This document shows, piece after piece, positions 26,087-31,236 of a stretch of DNA of 43,858 nt. The notes below the pieces were generated by a model. That model made no database searches. It had not been told where the DNA came from and worked only from the letters and a program-made list of their open reading frames with translations. Numbering within the stretch: position 1 is the stretch's first letter; each line of letters begins with the position of its first letter. The stretch is from assembly GCA_902520835.1 (NCBI GenBank), contig CABYPD010000011.1, positions 1 to 43,858 on the forward strand, given 5' to 3'. Source of the DNA: an uncultured Bacteroidota bacterium (lineage in GTDB: Bacteria > Bacteroidota > Bacteroidia > Flavobacteriales > Flavobacteriaceae). Made by a program: the position numbers and the translations under genes.

Positions 26087-26347
26087 TTAAAAATCAGCCT
26101 TATAATTAATTCTATAGCCTTTCACAATTTTTAAGTTGATCATTATTCCATCAGCATTCGCAAAAGCAGTTTTAATTTTTTGAACAAGCATTTCCATTAA
26201 TGGACCAAAATCACCGTAAATTTGAGTGCTCAATGGGTTTTCTAAAATTTCAAATCCTTCATTTCTAATTGAAAGTATAAAGCTTTTAATTATCTCTTTA
26301 TAATTATTATTCAAAGGCATTAAAGTAATTTCTATCGAGGTTTTCAT
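26087..26347 (-). CDS. Thiamine-binding-like (YkoF/MTH1187-type) protein
   Basis: An 86-residue protein with one ferredoxin-like domain: strand MKTSIEITLMPLN, helix YKEIIKSFILSIRNEG, strand FEILENPLSTQIYGD, helix FGPLMEMLVQKIKTAFANAD and closing strand GIMINLKIVKGYR. The sequence STQIYGDFGPLMEML fits the YkoF/MTH1187 thiamine-binding family, where the loop after 'GD' contacts ligand. It is cytoplasmic and may bind thiamine or a pyrimidine precursor. Downstream it is followed by the small gene at 25925-26056; upstream the ricin-lectin gene ends 25 bases away. Confidence 0.6.
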   Translation of the reverse strand: MKTSIEITLMPLNNNYKEIIKSFILSIRNEGFEILENPLSTQIYGDFGPLMEMLVQKIKTAFANADGIMINLKIVKGYRINYKADF

Positions 26348-26372: not shown

Positions 26373-26945
26373 TTAATTTGACGTTCTAGTTCCCCATTTT
26401 TGTCTAGCTGAAAGGTTATCATCACAATTCTCTAAAGTTAAACTTCTAATCAAATGAACAGGGCTACCACCTCCACCTTCACGAAAATTATCAGAAACAG
26501 TAAGGCATAAATTTAAATTAGTTTTTGGTTGTATTTTTCCATCGCTCTGTAAAATAAACTTCTGATTATCATTTTTGTTACAGCTACTCAATTTTAAACT
26601 TGAACCTGCTTTGTTTTCAGTTAACTCCATACATACATTAAAGTGACGAATATTAAATTCTTCATTTTTAATATTAGCTTTAATAAAACCTTGATCTACT
26701 GAAATTTCACCTTGATATGAATAACAAGAATGGGCTTGTAAGGGCCTATTAATATCTCCATTAGTTTTATAACCCATCATATCGATACAATATCCTCTAG
26801 AATCATTTAGAGTATTTAATAAGTAAACTTCAACAGTTTCTGAATTCAATACTTGAACTTGGGCATTAGCTTCATTTTCACTATCAGTACATGAGGAAAT
26901 AAATAAAATGAAATAAAGTATTTTAAATGGAGTTTTTATAAGCAT
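26373..26945 (-). CDS. Lipoprotein with ricin B-type lectin (beta-trefoil) domain
   Basis: A 190-residue lipoprotein with signal ending LFISSC (Cys19). The mature region shows beta-trefoil steps: GYCIDMMGYKTNGDINRPLQAHSCYSYQG, then VCMELTENKAGSSLKLSSCNKNDNQKF, then LCLTVSDNFREGGGGSPVHLIRSLTLENC and RQKW. Q-x-F/W motifs at the ends of two steps and Cys pairs at about 40-residue intervals are typical. Ricin-type domains bind sugars, often galactose or arabinose side chains. The first 23 bases overlap the zinc-ribbon gene upstream. Confidence 0.8.
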   Translation of the reverse strand: MLIKTPFKILYFILFISSCTDSENEANAQVQVLNSETVEVYLLNTLNDSRGYCIDMMGYKTNGDINRPLQAHSCYSYQGEISVDQGFIKANIKNEEFNIRHFNVCMELTENKAGSSLKLSSCNKNDNQKFILQSDGKIQPKTNLNLCLTVSDNFREGGGGSPVHLIRSLTLENCDDNLSARQKWGTRTSN

Positions 26946-27086: not shown

Positions 27087-27749
27087 TTAATCTGTACTCT
27101 TATTTCCTTTCATTAATTCAGATGCTAGCAAAGGCTTAATTTCATTTACTTTATTTTCACCATTATACCTAAAAGAATCTCTAATTTCAACTTGTCTCCA
27201 ATCAGTGGGGTAATATTTTGGATTAACTTCAGTGAGTGCATTCATTAACCATTTTTCTTTAGACTCATCATATATCAAATTATAAATAAAAGCCATTTTA
27301 TAACTTGGTATTCTATTTTCAGAGCAAAGAAAAACATCTAATAAACCAATATTAACTGATTTTTTAGTTAAAGGAAGATAAGAGAGCTTAGCTAATTTAA
27401 GTTCATTAAAATCATATGGATCACATATAAAAGAGTATGTGTTATTTCTAATATCGTTGTAAACTCCAACTATTTCTGGCAATGAAGAAAGATTTAAGGT
27501 TGGATTTCCAATAATCATTGAAAAGTTTATGTTGAATAATTCGGCCATTTTTTCATTACTCAACTTGTTTTCATTTAGAGTTTTGATGTATTTGTAAAAT
27601 GTATCAAAAGCACCAAGATATTCATTTTCAATTGAGGAATAATTAATGGTTTTTGATTCATTTTTTTTAATACATGAAGTAGACAATAGTGAAAACATTG
27701 TCAATATGATGATTAAATTAATATTAACAATTGATGTTTTTTTTATCAT
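27087..27749 (-). CDS. Lipoprotein of unknown function
   Basis: A 220-residue lipoprotein with signal ending SLLSTSC (Cys26). The mature part is mixed alpha/beta: EYLGAFDTFYKYIKTLNENKLSNEKMAELF near the start, a middle LNLSSLPEIVGVYNDIRNNTYSFICDPYD, and KMAFIYNLIYDESKEKWLMNALTEVNP near the end. That C-terminal pattern (strand, W, strand) resembles NTF2-like proteins but I cannot assign it firmly. Its start overlaps the upstream lipoprotein gene by 4 bases (ATGA), so they are translationally coupled. Confidence 0.68.
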   Translation of the reverse strand: MIKKTSIVNINLIIILTMFSLLSTSCIKKNESKTINYSSIENEYLGAFDTFYKYIKTLNENKLSNEKMAELFNINFSMIIGNPTLNLSSLPEIVGVYNDIRNNTYSFICDPYDFNELKLAKLSYLPLTKKSVNIGLLDVFLCSENRIPSYKMAFIYNLIYDESKEKWLMNALTEVNPKYYPTDWRQVEIRDSFRYNGENKVNEIKPLLASELMKGNKSTD

Positions 27750-28192
27750 AATTTTTGTGTTGTTCCTTCTTTTACTAATTCACCTGGTGTATTAAAACTG
27801 GACCAAAATCCTCTCAATAAATTGTTTTCATCAATTTTATAAAAAACAATTCCAAAGTCGGTTCCATTTGGATAATAATATGTGACAGTAAAATTATTTT
27901 CATCTTTAATTCCAATGCCTACATATTGAGCATTATCATCTCTCTTGTAATGTAAATAATAAACTTTATTGTATTTAAAAATATCTACGACACCATTTTC
28001 ACTTTCACCAGAATAATATTTATAAGTTCCACATAATGGATCATTTTTAGATGATTCCATAAGTTCAGACTTCTTATCAAATGGGTCAATTTTAAATGGA
28101 AAATCATCCATATTTAATGATGGATAAAAAAGAGAGCTTATGTCACAAGAAACAAGTGAAATAAACAAAAAAAGCACAATAATTTTTTTCAT
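27746..28192 (-). CDS. Small lipoprotein of unknown function
   Basis: A 148-residue lipoprotein with signal MKKIIVLFLFISLVSC (Cys16). The mature part is beta-rich: LCGTYKYYSGESENGVVDIFKYNKVYYLHYKR, then YVGIGIKDENNFTVTYYYPNG and RGFWSSFNTPGELVKEGTTQ. It looks like a small barrel or lipocalin-like fold. I recognise no family. It is the first gene of the lipoprotein/zinc-ribbon/ricin operon; the preceding minus-strand feature is the att-like repeat at 28241-28258. Confidence 0.65.
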   Translation of the reverse strand: MKKIIVLFLFISLVSCDISSLFYPSLNMDDFPFKIDPFDKKSELMESSKNDPLCGTYKYYSGESENGVVDIFKYNKVYYLHYKRDDNAQYVGIGIKDENNFTVTYYYPNGTDFGIVFYKIDENNLLRGFWSSFNTPGELVKEGTTQKL

Positions 28193-28240: not shown

Positions 28241-28258
28241 TTACTTGCCGATACAGAA
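28241..28258 (-). repeat. 18-bp copy of the mnmE 3' end (distal att-like repeat)
   Basis: On the minus strand this reads TTCTGTATCGGCAAGTAA. It differs at one position from the end of mnmE at 29854-29871 (TTTTGTATCGGCAAGTAA). Both encode Phe-Cys-Ile-Gly-Lys-stop. Outside the repeat the sequences diverge. The pattern of a complete target gene at one end and a lone copy of its 3' end at the other is that of attL/attR made by a tyrosine-recombinase element. Confidence 0.65.
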
Positions 28259-28330
28259 AGTATACTTGTTTGCTTTTGATTGACTATTTATATCTTTTGT
28301 TTTACTTTTTAGGGGGTTTTTAAAATTCAT
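28241..28330 (-). CDS. 29-residue ORF ending in the MnmE tail motif
   Basis: ATG at 28330-28328 opens 29 codons that end FCIGK-stop, the last residues of MnmE. The rest is Lys/Ser/Asn-rich and unrelated to MnmE. The stop codon and last five codons are the att-like repeat. It lies 16 bases past the stop of the endonuclease gene in the same direction. The frame may be a chance by-product of the duplication or a real peptide. Confidence 0.3.
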   Translation of the reverse strand: MNFKNPLKSKTKDINSQSKANKYTFCIGK

Positions 28331-28346
28331 TAGTACACTTTTGTAA

Positions 28347-29255
28347 TTATTTTTTATGTTGCCAACAAAATGTGCTTCCACTTGAGGCATTTCTTTTACA
28401 TTGAGCTCCTTTTAGAGTTATTGCAGTACATCTAATAACAATATTTGACTCTGACTTTTTTAAGGTTTTAACTTTATTTTGTTCACTAGATGCTATATCA
28501 TAATTACTGTACTTTTTATAGTTTTTATTTATACCCTTTTGATTGAAATTCCAGCCATAAATATCAATTTCACTTTCTATTCTATCTTCAATTGTATCTT
28601 CTAATTCACTTAAAAAATCAATACCTGTTATATTTTCAATGACATCGACCGTTACAACATAATCAGATAATTCACCTGAGATTTTTGTATTTGGCATCAC
28701 AAACGCAATCACTTTATTTTGATTTGGATCAAAAATTATCTTATAAAATCTTGATGGCACTGTTACATTGTTTGAACCAATATTGATTAAGTTGTTATCA
28801 TTTAAAACTCCTGCGACAGTCACATACAATGTTTTGTATGAACCCCAAGACCTAACCAAATCTTCTAATTTTTTCCATCCCCCTCTATTAAAAGATGCTC
28901 TTTGAGGGGAAATATTACTCATATAAAAAGATTCTGACATCATCGTACTATTAAGCTTCATATCTCCAGCTGGAGCCAGATGCCCTCTATCAAATCCTGA
29001 TTTATAATAATCTGAATTTAATGCAGAGCCTGTTTTTACTTTACTATCCTTTCTAAAATTATCTTTTCTCTTAGTTGATCCATTTATCATTGGAAAACTT
29101 AACTTGTAATGAACCCACTCTGCTTGCTCGTGTTTTTCTGAATATGATAGAGAAAAGTATTTATGACTTATGAACTGACCATTAGATTTAGGTAAAAAGC
29201 CTTGAGAAAAAGAAATAAGTGGAATAAATACTAATAGTAGAATTAGTTTTTTCAC
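28347..29255 (-). CDS. Secreted DNA/RNA non-specific endonuclease with C-terminal zinc-binding tail
   Basis: A 302-residue protein starting with GTG; signal peptide ends ISFSQ (near residue 18). The NUC1/endonuclease G fold is clear: SGFDRGHLAPAGDM with catalytic His92 (DRGH) and NISPQRASFNRGGWKKLE with metal-ligand Asn123. The last 28 residues add a small module, CTAITLKGAQC then FCWQH, of the kind that binds zinc (C-x9-C-x10-C-x2-H). The enzyme degrades nucleic acids outside the cell or in the periplasm. The GTG start overlaps the upstream gene's TGA. It lies inside the att-like segment. Confidence 0.9.
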   Translation of the reverse strand: MKKLILLLVFIPLISFSQGFLPKSNGQFISHKYFSLSYSEKHEQAEWVHYKLSFPMINGSTKRKDNFRKDSKVKTGSALNSDYYKSGFDRGHLAPAGDMKLNSTMMSESFYMSNISPQRASFNRGGWKKLEDLVRSWGSYKTLYVTVAGVLNDNNLINIGSNNVTVPSRFYKIIFDPNQNKVIAFVMPNTKISGELSDYVVTVDVIENITGIDFLSELEDTIEDRIESEIDIYGWNFNQKGINKNYKKYSNYDIASSEQNKVKTLKKSESNIVIRCTAITLKGAQCKRNASSGSTFCWQHKK

Positions 29256-29794
29256 TTATTCTTAATTATATCATTATATTTTTTACTGAATTTTTTATAC
29301 TGCTCTTTACTTATATCTCCTTCATTGTACATATTTTCCAATAACTTAACTCTCTCTTTAGCTTGATTAACAGTCATTAATTCATAATTACTCTGATTGG
29401 AAGAATTTATGGTCTTCTTTACAGATTTTAAATTTTCTTTATCTCTATTTTTTTGATCTTTAGCAAGTTCTTTACTTTTCTTTTTTTCATATTTTTTTCT
29501 ATCTTTTTCTCTCTTTATTCTATCTCTATATGACTTTCGTGAACTTCTAAGTTTAGCAGAATATGCAGCAGCAGAACTATAGCCAAGTCTTTTAGCTTCA
29601 GCTTCTCTTCTCTCATCTCTTTCTTTTGCAATATTTGAAATAGTATTTCCTAATTTTATTACTTCTTCTGCAACAGCCTTTTGGCTCTCAATTAATTTAT
29701 GGTCAATTTCCTTACGAATTTGATATTTTTTTGGGTCTATTTGTGAGTGAGAAATAAACGGAATTAATAATAATATTAAGACTATATTTTTCAT
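29252..29794 (-). CDS. Secreted coiled-coil protein with SHOCT-like end
   Basis: I take the ATG at 29794-29792, because it begins the signal peptide (MKNIVLILLLIPFISHSQ); four residues upstream are dropped. The 180-residue product is mostly charged helix: alternating Lys, Arg and Glu from residue 45 to 130 (RRSRKSYRDRIKREKDRKKYEKKK region), a likely coiled coil. The end (ERVKLLENMYNEGDISKEQYKKFSKKY) resembles a SHOCT oligomerisation motif. It overlaps the endonuclease start by four bases, so the two are coupled. Function unknown; a structural or binding partner of the nuclease is conceivable. Confidence 0.68.
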   Translation of the reverse strand: MKNIVLILLLIPFISHSQIDPKKYQIRKEIDHKLIESQKAVAEEVIKLGNTISNIAKERDERREAEAKRLGYSSAAAYSAKLRSSRKSYRDRIKREKDRKKYEKKKSKELAKDQKNRDKENLKSVKKTINSSNQSNYELMTVNQAKERVKLLENMYNEGDISKEQYKKFSKKYNDIIKNK

Positions 29795-29853
29795 ATTAAT
29801 TATCAAGTTAGAAAAAAAAATTATATTTATATAACTATATGATTATCAATTAC

Positions 29854-29871
29854 TTACTTGCCGATACAAAA
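29854..29871 (-). repeat. 18-bp att-like repeat at the 3' end of mnmE (proximal copy)
   Basis: On the minus strand this reads TTTTGTATCGGCAAGTAA and forms the last six codons of mnmE. As I recall, Salmonella genomic island 1 and relatives use an 18-bp attB at this same place, TTCTGTATTGGTAAGTAA, encoding the same residues. The copy here pairs with 28241-28258, bounding about 1.6 kb. Confidence 0.65.
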
Positions 29872-31236
29872 GTTAGAGAATATATTTCCCAACATTTCAT
29901 CGTTACTAATTTCACCTGTAATTTCACCAACAGAATCAATTACATTCCTTAAATCAACTGAAAGTAAATCTCCAGGGACTTCATTTTCAATTGCCTCTTT
30001 TACTTTTTCAATTGCATTGATTGATTCAGAAAGAGCATTATAATGTCTTAAGTTTGTTACAATAACACCATTATTTGATGAATCACTGCCAAATTCATTT
30101 GATAATTTTTCTCGAACAACACTAACTGAGTCTTTATCAATTGCGGATATTTCTAAAATTGATTTGATATTGTATTTTTTAAAGTTATCTAGATTAATTT
30201 TGATTTTACTCTTTAAATCAATTTTGTTTCTAACTAACATGATTTTTAAATCATTGGTATGAAACTTTTCGAAGTCATTCAAAATCTCCTTTTCATTAGT
30301 ATCGTTGATATCAAATAAATAGATTAAAACTGAAGATTTTAAAATTTTTTCTTTAGTTATCTCAATTCCTTTAATTTCAATTTCATTTGATGTTTCTCTT
30401 AATCCAGCAGTATCAATAAATCTAAATTTAATTCCATTAATAAACATCGTATCTTCAATAGCGTCTCTAGTTGTTCCTGGAATATTTGAAACTATCGCTT
30501 TGTCTTCGTTTAACAAAGAATTTAGTAGAGAGGACTTCCCTGCATTTGGCTTGCCTACAATTGCTACTGGAACTCCATTTTTAATTGCATTTCCAAGTTT
30601 AAAACTATCCTTTAGAGAGATTAATTTCTTTTCAACTTTTTCAACGAGCTTAATTAAATCTTCTTTATTAGCAAATGAAACATCCTCTTCAGAAAAATCT
30701 AACTCTAGCTCAATCATAGATAAAAAATGAAGAAGGTCTGCTCTTAATAGCTTAAGTTCACTCTGAAATCCTCCTCTCATTTGATTAAGAGAAATTTTAT
30801 GCATTGCCTGTGAATCTGAATAAATTAAATCCGAAACAGCCTCAGCCTGAGTCAAATCAAGCTTACCATTCAAGAAAGCTCTCATGGTAAACTCTCCTGG
30901 CTTAGCAAGCCTAATATTATTTTTTAATAAAGTCTCTACAATAGATTTTTGAATAAATGTTGAACCATGGCAAGTTATTTCAACTGACTCATCTCCAGTA
31001 AAAGATTTTCCTTTTTTAAAAATAGACACTAACACTTCATCAATGACATTATCATCTATAACAAACTCTCCAAAGTGAAGAGTGTGAGAATTTTGATTTG
31101 CTAATTTTTTTTTCTTTTTTGAATTAAAAAAAGGTTGAAATTTAGAAATTGTATTAGGGCCAGAGATTCTTATTATTGCTATTGCTCCCATTCCAGGAGA
31201 AGATGAAATTGCAACTATATCATCATTGATTTCCAT
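29854..31236 (-). CDS. mnmE: tRNA uridine-5-carboxymethylaminomethyl modification GTPase MnmE
   Basis: A 460-residue protein of normal length. The N-terminal folate-binding domain starts DDIVAISSSPGMGAIAIIRISGPN and includes GEFTMRAFLNGKLDLTQAEAV. The inserted G domain has the P-loop VGKPNAGKSS (residues 228-236), IPGTTRD, DTAGLRE and RNKIDL. The C-terminus ends FCIGK, where the Cys is required for modification of U34 in certain tRNAs together with MnmG. The ORF ends in the att-like repeat; the gene remains intact. It overlaps no neighbour; the GNAT-like gene ends two bases upstream. Confidence 0.96.
   Translation of the reverse strand: MEINDDIVAISSSPGMGAIAIIRISGPNTISKFQPFFNSKKKKKLANQNSHTLHFGEFVIDDNVIDEVLVSIFKKGKSFTGDESVEITCHGSTFIQKSIVETLLKNNIRLAKPGEFTMRAFLNGKLDLTQAEAVSDLIYSDSQAMHKISLNQMRGGFQSELKLLRADLLHFLSMIELELDFSEEDVSFANKEDLIKLVEKVEKKLISLKDSFKLGNAIKNGVPVAIVGKPNAGKSSLLNSLLNEDKAIVSNIPGTTRDAIEDTMFINGIKFRFIDTAGLRETSNEIEIKGIEITKEKILKSSVLIYLFDINDTNEKEILNDFEKFHTNDLKIMLVRNKIDLKSKIKINLDNFKKYNIKSILEISAIDKDSVSVVREKLSNEFGSDSSNNGVIVTNLRHYNALSESINAIEKVKEAIENEVPGDLLSVDLRNVIDSVGEITGEISNDEMLGNIFSNFCIGK

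What the first reader, a model, noticed from the sequence alone, without database searches (positions are those of the whole stretch)
28241..29871. att-like duplication of the mnmE 3' end bounding a 1.6-kb segment
The last 18 bases of mnmE (Phe-Cys-Ile-Gly-Lys-stop) recur with one mismatch (TTTTGTATCGGCAAGTAA versus TTCTGTATCGGCAAGTAA) 1.6 kb downstream, and the sequence diverges outside the repeat. From established knowledge, SGI1-type integrative elements use the 3' end of trmE/mnmE as attB, with an 18-bp core encoding the same residues (I recall TTCTGTATTGGTAAGTAA). The segment between carries a secreted nuclease and a coiled-coil protein but no integrase. It could be an integrase-less passenger, a decayed island, or a hotspot that has gained cargo. 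I know of no described flavobacterial element at this site.
Basis: partly seen in the sequence, partly recalled or inferred. Interest (0 to 1): 0.78.

Follow-up and report, generated by a model that had tools for sequence, protein, structure and literature searches.

The report
Integrase-less gene cassettes behind mnmE
A flavobacterium, probably marine, carries a tiny DNA cassette, two genes long and with no recombination enzyme of its own, slotted into the end of a tRNA-modification gene; related bacteria carry the same ends around different genes, so this spot looks like a docking site that borrows its enzyme from elsewhere.

Summary
In detail: the last 18 bases of mnmE (29854-29871, minus strand) recur with one mismatch at 28241-28258. 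It is an integrated element, not chance. Its ends recur in congeners around other cargo. A right end of about 100 bp before the distal core occurs in 6 of 23 genus genomes. A left-end motif behind the mnmE core is exact in 11 of 17 mnmE loci. Two genomes show right end-core-left end, that is, tandem elements. One cargo gene is 98.3-99.5% identical in DNA among three genomes whose mnmE DNA is 70.6-73.6% identical, so DNA at this site moved recently between species. Of 397 family genomes at least 27 have a second core within 60 kb. Twelve hold a tyrosine integrase within 0.9 kb of mnmE (8.5-57 kb islands); eleven hold integrase-less segments of 0.94-10.4 kb. Many ends of both kinds share an 11-bp-period repeat at a fixed distance from the distal core. 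No mnmE integrase was found in the genus. Best reading: non-autonomous cassettes resembling CIMEs (cis-mobilizable elements), moved in trans by a borrowed integrase. Site-specific insertion is well supported; the helper is inferred. SGI1 shares only the target.

The parts
29854..31236 (-). mnmE (trmE, tRNA modification GTPase), whose 3' end is the target site
   Evidence: 460-aa ORF ending FCIGK; MnmE_helical, TrmE_N and MMR_HSR1 in Pfam
29854..29871 (-). proximal 18-bp core (attL core), last six codons of mnmE
   Evidence: pattern search; read again
29824..29848 (-). left-end motif TGATAATCATATAGTTATATAAATA
   Evidence: the 11 hits with 0-1 mismatch in 23 genus genomes lie behind the mnmE core or behind a second core; five further hits have 2 mismatches, one behind mnmE (G022) and four elsewhere; reversed-pattern control 0 in all 23
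29252..29806 (-). cargo gene 1: 184-aa charged protein, coiled-coil by eye, with a signal-peptide-like start; overlaps the nuclease start by 4 bp
   Evidence: no Pfam, NCBIfam or PADLOC match; in a 395-genome family search only two weak partial matches besides itself
28347..29255 (-). cargo gene 2: 302-aa DNA/RNA non-specific endonuclease with a signal-peptide-like start and a C-terminal Cys/His motif (both by eye)
   Evidence: PF01223, E 2.1e-52; no PADLOC match; one NCBIfam match far below its cut-off
28259..28345 (-). right end (RE), conserved in five other congeners around different cargo
   Evidence: (query included the core): G007 96%, G002 94%, G017 94%, G012 92%, G021 89% identity
28329..28338 (-). 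arm-like sequence GTGTACTAAT inside the RE; TGTAC doubled with an 11-bp period in G007, G017 and G021, single in the window and G002, absent in G012
28241..28258 (-). distal 18-bp core (attR core), one mismatch to the proximal copy
27746..28192 (-). 148-aa lipoprotein-like gene just outside the element; no blastp relative among the 20 other mnmE regions compared
   Evidence: no NCBIfam match
27087..27749 (-). 220-aa lipoprotein-like gene outside the element; in G012 it lies directly behind the mnmE core and left end
   Evidence: window +2098 to +3511 matches G012 +51 to +1464 at 97.7%

Best explanation
The segment 28241-29871 is a non-autonomous, site-specifically integrated cassette. SHOWN by sequence: it is bounded by two copies of the mnmE 3' core; it has a left end and a right end that congeners share around other cargo; it carries no integrase; equivalent elements sit in tandem in G007 and G017; and DNA at this site has moved recently between species. 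INFERRED: a tyrosine integrase specific for the mnmE 3' end, brought by a phage or larger integrative island, acts in trans on the ends (arm-type repeats plus core). It recombines the circular cassette with the core at the end of mnmE, re-making an intact mnmE and stacking new cassettes next to the gene. How the cassette travels between cells (in a phage particle, behind a conjugative island, or by DNA uptake) is unknown. The cargo is likely accessory: here a nuclease, probably secreted, with a partner; in other congeners restriction-modification or unknown, probably secreted, proteins.
For: RE in 6 of 23 genus genomes with different cargo. RE identity is 81.0-96.5% over 82-85 bp while mnmE DNA identity is 69.2-91.9%; in 14 of the 15 pairs RE is the more similar, e.g. 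window versus G007 95.3% against 69.9%. Left-end motif TGATWATCA exact in 11 of 17 mnmE loci and within one mismatch in 13, including 3 loci whose first gene points the other way. RE-core-left end junctions in G007 and G017. The 384-aa cargo gene is 98.3-99.5% identical in DNA in G007, G018 and G017 with mnmE at 70.6-73.6%; in G007/G018 the match runs from the core through left end and gene (99.5% over 1271 bp). The first ORF of 60 aa or more behind mnmE belongs to a different blastp cluster in each of 17 loci. Family-wide at least 27 of 397 genomes, the window's included, have a second exact core within 60 kb on the same strand; about 0.2 expected by a rough estimate from the reversed-pattern control. 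Integrases within 0.9 kb behind the mnmE core, catalytic residues in invariant columns. Repeat scoring at least 10 of 14 at 54-60 bp before the distal core: 8 of 14 integrase-associated ends (11 islands, 3 viral contigs), 7 of 12 integrase-less ends outside the genus, 4 of 4 further ends, 0 of 34 mnmE controls, 37 of 5400 random windows.
Against: No mnmE-site integrase was seen in 23 genus genomes: 34 of 37 Phage_integrase hits look like XerC/XerD by score and length, and of the three others two lie beside a tRNA-Asn gene. The genomes are 55-87% complete. No clean empty site for this element was found. The genus right ends carry TGTAC repeats at -90/-79 (one copy in the window and G002, none in G012), not at the -57/-45 of the islands: 0 of 6 pass the fixed-position test, and 6 of 14 integrase-associated ends fail it too. 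Only 6 of the 13 left-end loci have a detected RE; for two of the other seven the contig ends within about 2 kb, for five there are 10-17 kb without one. The left end is missing behind the distal core in the window, G012, G021 and G002. The arm consensus was chosen by eye from these ends, so the test is not independent. No RE was found in viral contigs. Excision was never observed.
Confidence: 0.78

Rival explanations
1. Decayed island: a full integrative element once inserted at mnmE, lost its integrase and transfer genes, and the remnant with attL and attR is now immobile.
For: This is the described origin of CIMEs (PMC5704250, passages seen). Integrase-bearing islands at the same site are common in the family. 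Seven of 13 genus loci keep a left end but have no detected right end.
Against: Ends are conserved at high identity around unrelated cargo in several species, and a cargo gene with 98.3-99.5% DNA identity occurs in genomes whose mnmE DNA is about 26-29% different. Independent decay of islands would hardly leave the same trimmed ends with different genes.
Confidence: 0.15
2. Homologous recombination hotspot: DNA taken up by transformation is exchanged through conserved flanks, and the core repeats are incidental.
For: The region behind mnmE is replaced wholesale between the window and G003. One cargo joint lies at a similar signal-peptide start rather than at a core (G007 versus G018, right side).
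Against: In G007/G018 (mnmE DNA 73.6%) the near-identical stretch begins at the core, where upstream one has mnmE and the other an RE, and the distal core plus RE is a precise boundary. Second cores are far above chance family-wide.
Confidence: 0.08
3. The host XerC/XerD recombinases, the tyrosine recombinases found in these genomes, move the cassettes.
For: 34 of 37 Phage_integrase hits in the 23 genus genomes look like XerC/XerD (by score and length).
Against: The core is the mnmE 3' end used by dedicated integrases in related genera, and four of six genus right ends carry TGTAC repeats or, with the window and G002, at least one copy in five of six, like integrase arm sites. No dif site was looked for.
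Confidence: 0.06
4. Chance similarity or old duplication of the mnmE end.
For: One shuffle in 100 reached two matches with up to 3 mismatches. In other genera one second core lies behind a longer copied mnmE end (G348, by eye) and G030 and G293 lack arm repeats.
Against: Conserved RE and left end in congeners, tandem elements and cross-species cargo.
Confidence: 0.01

Closest known systems
CIME (cis-mobilizable element; definition seen in passages of PMC5704250)
   Same: Flanked by attL and attR; no integrase or transfer genes; sits in tandem with other elements at one site (accretion).
   Different: Small here (0.8-4.2 kb in the five genus elements bounded by two cores on one contig, 0.94 kb in G346), ends conserved across species around unrelated cargo of one to a few genes, and no autonomous partner seen in the genus genomes held. 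It looks like a class of its own rather than a remnant of one ICE.
SGI1-family integrative mobilizable elements (PMC2297512, passages seen)
   Same: Target is the last 18 bp of mnmE/thdF/trmE; tandem arrays at the site.
   Different: SGI1 is far larger (recalled) and uses its own integrase; it was described in Salmonella and other Gammaproteobacteria. The shared core probably reflects the conserved C-terminal Cys-x-Gly-Lys end of MnmE (recalled), not shared descent.
mnmE-site islands and phage-like contigs of Bacteroidota found here (L162, L164, L178, L206; viral L214, L232 and others)
   Same: Same site, same core, and in many an 11-bp-period repeat before the distal core that 7 of 12 integrase-less ends outside the genus share.
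   Different: They carry an integrase within 0.9 kb of mnmE (PF00589 and PF13102 in 5 of 5 tested, arm-binding PF17293 in 3 of 5) and are 8.5-57 kb long. Genus RE repeats lie at another distance.
Integron gene cassettes (recalled)
   Same: Small units of few genes lined up at one fixed site, recombinase supplied in trans.
   Different: No integrase gene beside the array; the site is the 3' end of a housekeeping gene; ends look like linear arm sites plus core rather than attC (folding not tested).
tmRNA-site islands moved by a jumbo phage (PMC12595487, passages seen)
   Same: Islands lacking transfer genes, carrying defence cargo, at a conserved gene end, one of them moved by a helper phage.
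   Different: Those encode their own tyrosine integrase.

Membership tests
CIME | flanked by attL and attR | tested here: met
   two cores plus left and right ends, by sequence only
CIME | no integrase or conjugation genes | tested here: met
   two cargo genes only; no Phage_integrase near
CIME | derived from an ICE or IME by deletion | tested here: inconclusive
   islands exist at the site in other genera, but no ICE/IME with the genus RE was found
CIME | mobilised by accretion with an autonomous element | not testable with these tools
   needs excision and transfer assays
SGI1 family | integrates at the last 18 bp of mnmE | tested here: met
   target described in PMC2297512
SGI1 family | encodes its own integrase | tested here: not met
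   no integrase in the element
SGI1 family | mobilization genes responding to an IncC helper plasmid | tested here: not met
   only a nuclease and a 184-aa protein without a family match are encoded; activator binding sites not searched
Integron cassette | folded attC site and an integron integrase platform | not tested
   attC folding not examined; no integrase gene lies beside the array
Phage satellite | helper-phage dependent packaging with satellite genes | not testable with these tools
   neither cargo gene has a phage-type family match in Pfam, NCBIfam or PADLOC (PHROGs not searched); RE not found in viral contigs

The most novel reading that the evidence does not exclude
The end of mnmE in these flavobacteria is an integron-like docking platform. 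Minimal cassettes of one to a few genes, often secreted proteins or anti-phage systems, are stacked directly behind the gene by an integrase that the host chromosomes do not keep and that phages or visiting islands supply. Across Flavobacteriaceae, integrase-less cassettes down to about 0.9 kb form a separate, self-propagating class of mobile element that parasitises mnmE-specific integrases, with a left end that may also serve as a promoter for the first gene.
Probability: 0.35. Interest if true: 0.85.

Novelty: new variant of a known kind. Interest (0 to 1): 0.66.

Why it matters
If true, a class of cassettes of one to a few genes that need only two short ends and a borrowed integrase would be missed by scans that look for integrases, and would help explain how defence and secreted-protein genes turn over at one fixed site in small-genome flavobacteria. 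It also gives a compact test of whether integrases of phages and islands act in trans on unrelated DNA in nature.

Tried and rejected
Chance duplication was rejected. A helper integrase in the genus was sought with Phage_integrase in 23 genomes: 34 of 37 hits look like XerC/XerD by score and length. The 346-aa integrases of G003 and G017 lie beside a tRNA-Asn gene and, in the roughly 10-kb stretches fetched, have no core within 2 mismatches; the third (G013, 533 aa) has none within 3.

Viral contigs: a 17-base RE piece gave 9 contigs, none with more than a 17-23-base match to the RE. A longer RE pattern gave 0. The left-end motif gave 7 contigs; none has an exact core in the stretch held and none an ORF matching the integrase HMM. 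The 384-aa cargo has no viral relative. The nuclease has three distant ones at 28-45% identity, not examined further.

Partial RE matches in G004 and G018 (where the tool counts 8 of 23 genomes) and in 19 genomes of other genera (24-61 bases) were not counted, because such A-rich stretches give E between 1e-6 and 1e-3 across the family. One search scored only 2 candidates per genome. A signal-peptide DNA stretch alike between genomes was not repeated in the window's own genome.

Genomes with two or more same-strand cores not counted as pairs: G024, G088, G127, G189, G230, G306, G321, G347, G357, G372 (different contigs), G113, G168, G170 (about 0.3-1.5 Mb apart). Genomes with cores on opposite strands were not counted either. 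Four pairs were left undetermined: G411, G106, G036, G104. G348 looks like a longer duplication of the mnmE end, and G030 and G293 lack arm repeats; they are still counted among the integrase-less segments. Integrase-less means no ORF matching an HMM of the mnmE-site integrases; serine recombinases were not sought in the other genera.

The one genome-contig scan used a 27-base RE pattern and gave 5 records, whose contig lengths are those of five genus genomes.

Full report
OBSERVATION. In register the identity stops at both edges of the 18 bases. mnmE is intact and ends FCIGK. Between the copies lie a PF01223 endonuclease (302 aa) and a 184-aa protein without a match in Pfam, NCBIfam or PADLOC, whose genes overlap by 4 bp. 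The assembly (1.41 Mb, 84% complete) has two Phage_integrase hits, both on other contigs. Records with the genus right end carry titles such as uncultured Bacteroidetes assemblies AG-900-K16 and Cryomorphaceae bacterium MED-G14, so the host is an uncultured flavobacterium with a small genome, probably marine (habitat from recalled knowledge of such record sets).

THE ENDS. Oriented along mnmE, 17 of the 23 genus genomes have a full mnmE and some downstream DNA. Behind the core, TGATWATCA within six bases is exact in 11 of 17 and within one mismatch in 13 of 17; 13 of 1620 random windows of 90 bp hold it exactly. A longer form, TGATAATCANNNNGTTATNTAAATA, was scanned over 23 genomes with up to two mismatches. 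Its 11 hits with 0-1 mismatch lie behind the mnmE core or a second core; five hits have two mismatches, four of them elsewhere; the reversed control never hits. Upstream of the second core lies a right end of about 100 bp, found in the window, G007, G002, G017, G021 and G012 at 89-100% identity (two further genomes have partial matches at the level of family background). In G007 and G017 the order is right end, core, left end, as in a tandem. In 5 of the 6 distal cores position 3 is C, while it is T in 4 of the 6 mnmE cores. This fits strand exchange downstream of position 3; for SGI1 at thdF, exchange upstream of position 9 was reported (PMC2297512, passages seen).

MOBILITY. The first ORF of 60 aa or more behind mnmE falls in a different blastp cluster in each of the 17 loci (mechanical ORFs). 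The nearest relative, G003, is 97% identical through mnmE to the last base of the core, and then shows no match until +3854 (window +2736). A 384-aa gene is 99.5% identical in DNA over 1271 bp between G007 (second element) and G018 (first element), the match starting at the core. G017 holds it inverted at 98.3-98.8%. mnmE DNA of these genomes is 70.6-73.6% identical. Among 15 pairs of right ends, identity is 81.0-96.5% over 82-85 bp against mnmE identities of 69.2-91.9%; only the pair window/G012 is the other way round (87.8 against 91.9). I read these as transfers between species at the core.

THE FAMILY. An exact core pattern was found in 255 of 397 genomes drawn from the same family (the window's genome is one of them). 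Genomes with two or more same-strand hits that the listing had cut were queried again (22 genomes). At least 27 have a second core within 60 kb on the same strand. The reversed pattern hit about 24 times in all (my count of the table), which with roughly 1.3 Gb of sequence predicts about 0.2 such pairs. Twelve pairs hold an integrase within 0.9 kb behind mnmE (G152, G269, G310, G292, G353, G183, G335, G128, G118, G116, G158, G076; 8.5-57 kb). Eleven genomes hold 13 segments without an ORF matching the integrase HMM: the window 1.6 kb, G346 0.94, G348 1.5, G030 1.6, G377 1.8, G336 1.8 and 3.4, G322 3.2 and 3.2, G293 1.7, G111 5.3, G114 9.5, G305 10.4 kb. Four are undetermined (G411, G106, G036, G104). 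Fourteen integrases (the twelve, G372 and G026) align with the catalytic residues in invariant columns (R225, K253, H310, R313, H336, Y345; assignment of the roles recalled). Of five tested, all have PF00589 and PF13102 and three have PF17293. In IMG/VR, 80 of 397 relatives were kept. Ten of these 80 carry the exact core: by eye, seven at the end of mnmE and three between arm-like repeats and the integrase, as in a phage attP or a tandem.

ARMS. In many islands the distal core is preceded by TTGTACC-like repeats with an 11-bp period. Scored at 54-60 bp before the core, a score of 10 or more of 14 is reached by 8 of 14 integrase-associated ends (11 islands and 3 viral contigs; G076's far end was not fetched), 7 of 18 integrase-less ends (7 of 12 outside the genus, 0 of 6 inside), 4 of 4 further ends, 0 of 34 sequences upstream of mnmE cores and 37 of 5400 random windows. 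The consensus was picked by eye from these ends, so this is support, not an independent test. In the genus the repeats read GTGTACKAAT and lie at -90 and -79; both are present in G007, G017 and G021, one in the window and G002, none in G012. The genus ends therefore probably answer to a different, undiscovered integrase of the same general kind.

CARGO. Besides the window's nuclease and partner, genus loci carry behind the mnmE core and left end a PADLOC PDC-S02 protein with a type IIG restriction enzyme (G007, bounded by both cores), a type IIG enzyme (G020, no RE seen), a GIY-YIG protein (G022, no RE seen), and proteins with signal-peptide-like starts and no Pfam match (G018, G021, G002, G017). 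Outside the genus, between cores: a Fic protein (G377), an acyltransferase-like protein (G293), an ion channel and a sortilin-like protein (G322).

MECHANISM AND LIMITS. I read the segment as a non-autonomous cassette: attL (core plus left end), cargo, attR (right end plus core), moved by an integrase acting in trans. Insertion at the core and recent movement of DNA at this site are shown by sequence. The helper, the circular form and the mode of transfer are inferred. Against it: no helper in 23 incomplete genus genomes, no clean empty site, no right end detected in 7 of the 13 left-end loci, five of which have 10-17 kb downstream, no left end behind the window's distal core, and no right end in viral contigs.

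KNOWN THINGS. CIMEs are defined as elements that lost integration and transfer genes but kept attL and attR, and that accrete with incoming elements (PMC5704250, passages seen). SGI1 and MGIVchHai6 use trmE (same paper, table passage). Five searches combining mnmE or trmE with Bacteroidetes/Bacteroidota, Flavobacteri, prophage attachment site, SGI1, integrase or hotspot terms listed no paper that, by title or start of abstract, describes an element at mnmE in Bacteroidota. Searches listed 15 of 42 and 10 of 40 papers, only listings and passages were read, and the library lacks most subscription journals. Riemerella islands in print sit at tRNA genes (PMC9745183, PMC6764341, passages seen).

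Noticed in passing
L072 (G012) near its second core: In G012 the thiamine-binding-like gene (intact in the window at 26087-26347) is cut and runs in frame into the right end, giving a chimeric frame that ends FCIGK; the contig ends about 200 bp further on, so an assembly artefact is possible.
   Followed up: partly
28241-28330: The right end is an open frame of 29 codons whose translation ends in the mnmE-like FCIGK; the frame is open in the five congeners too, but an ATG is not conserved.
   Followed up: partly
L179, L180 (G003:C13, G017:C7): Two related 346-aa tyrosine recombinases (57% identical) sit beside a tRNA-Asn gene (ARAGORN) in two congeners; perhaps a second, separate integration site in the genus.
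   Followed up: partly
L170 (G036) and L210 (G106): Genes that look like cobalamin biosynthesis (named by eye, no search) lie between two mnmE-type cores; in G036 the flank behind both cores is also alike, as in a larger duplication.
   Followed up: no
L191, L194, L196 (IMG/VR contigs): The left-end-like motif TGATAATCANNNAGTTATNTAAAT occurs between predicted genes in some phage contigs without a core nearby, so it may double as a promoter-like or regulatory sequence.
   Followed up: partly
26373-26945: Ricin-B-lectin-like gene with a lipoprotein-like start (PF00652) in the variable stretch behind the element.
   Followed up: no
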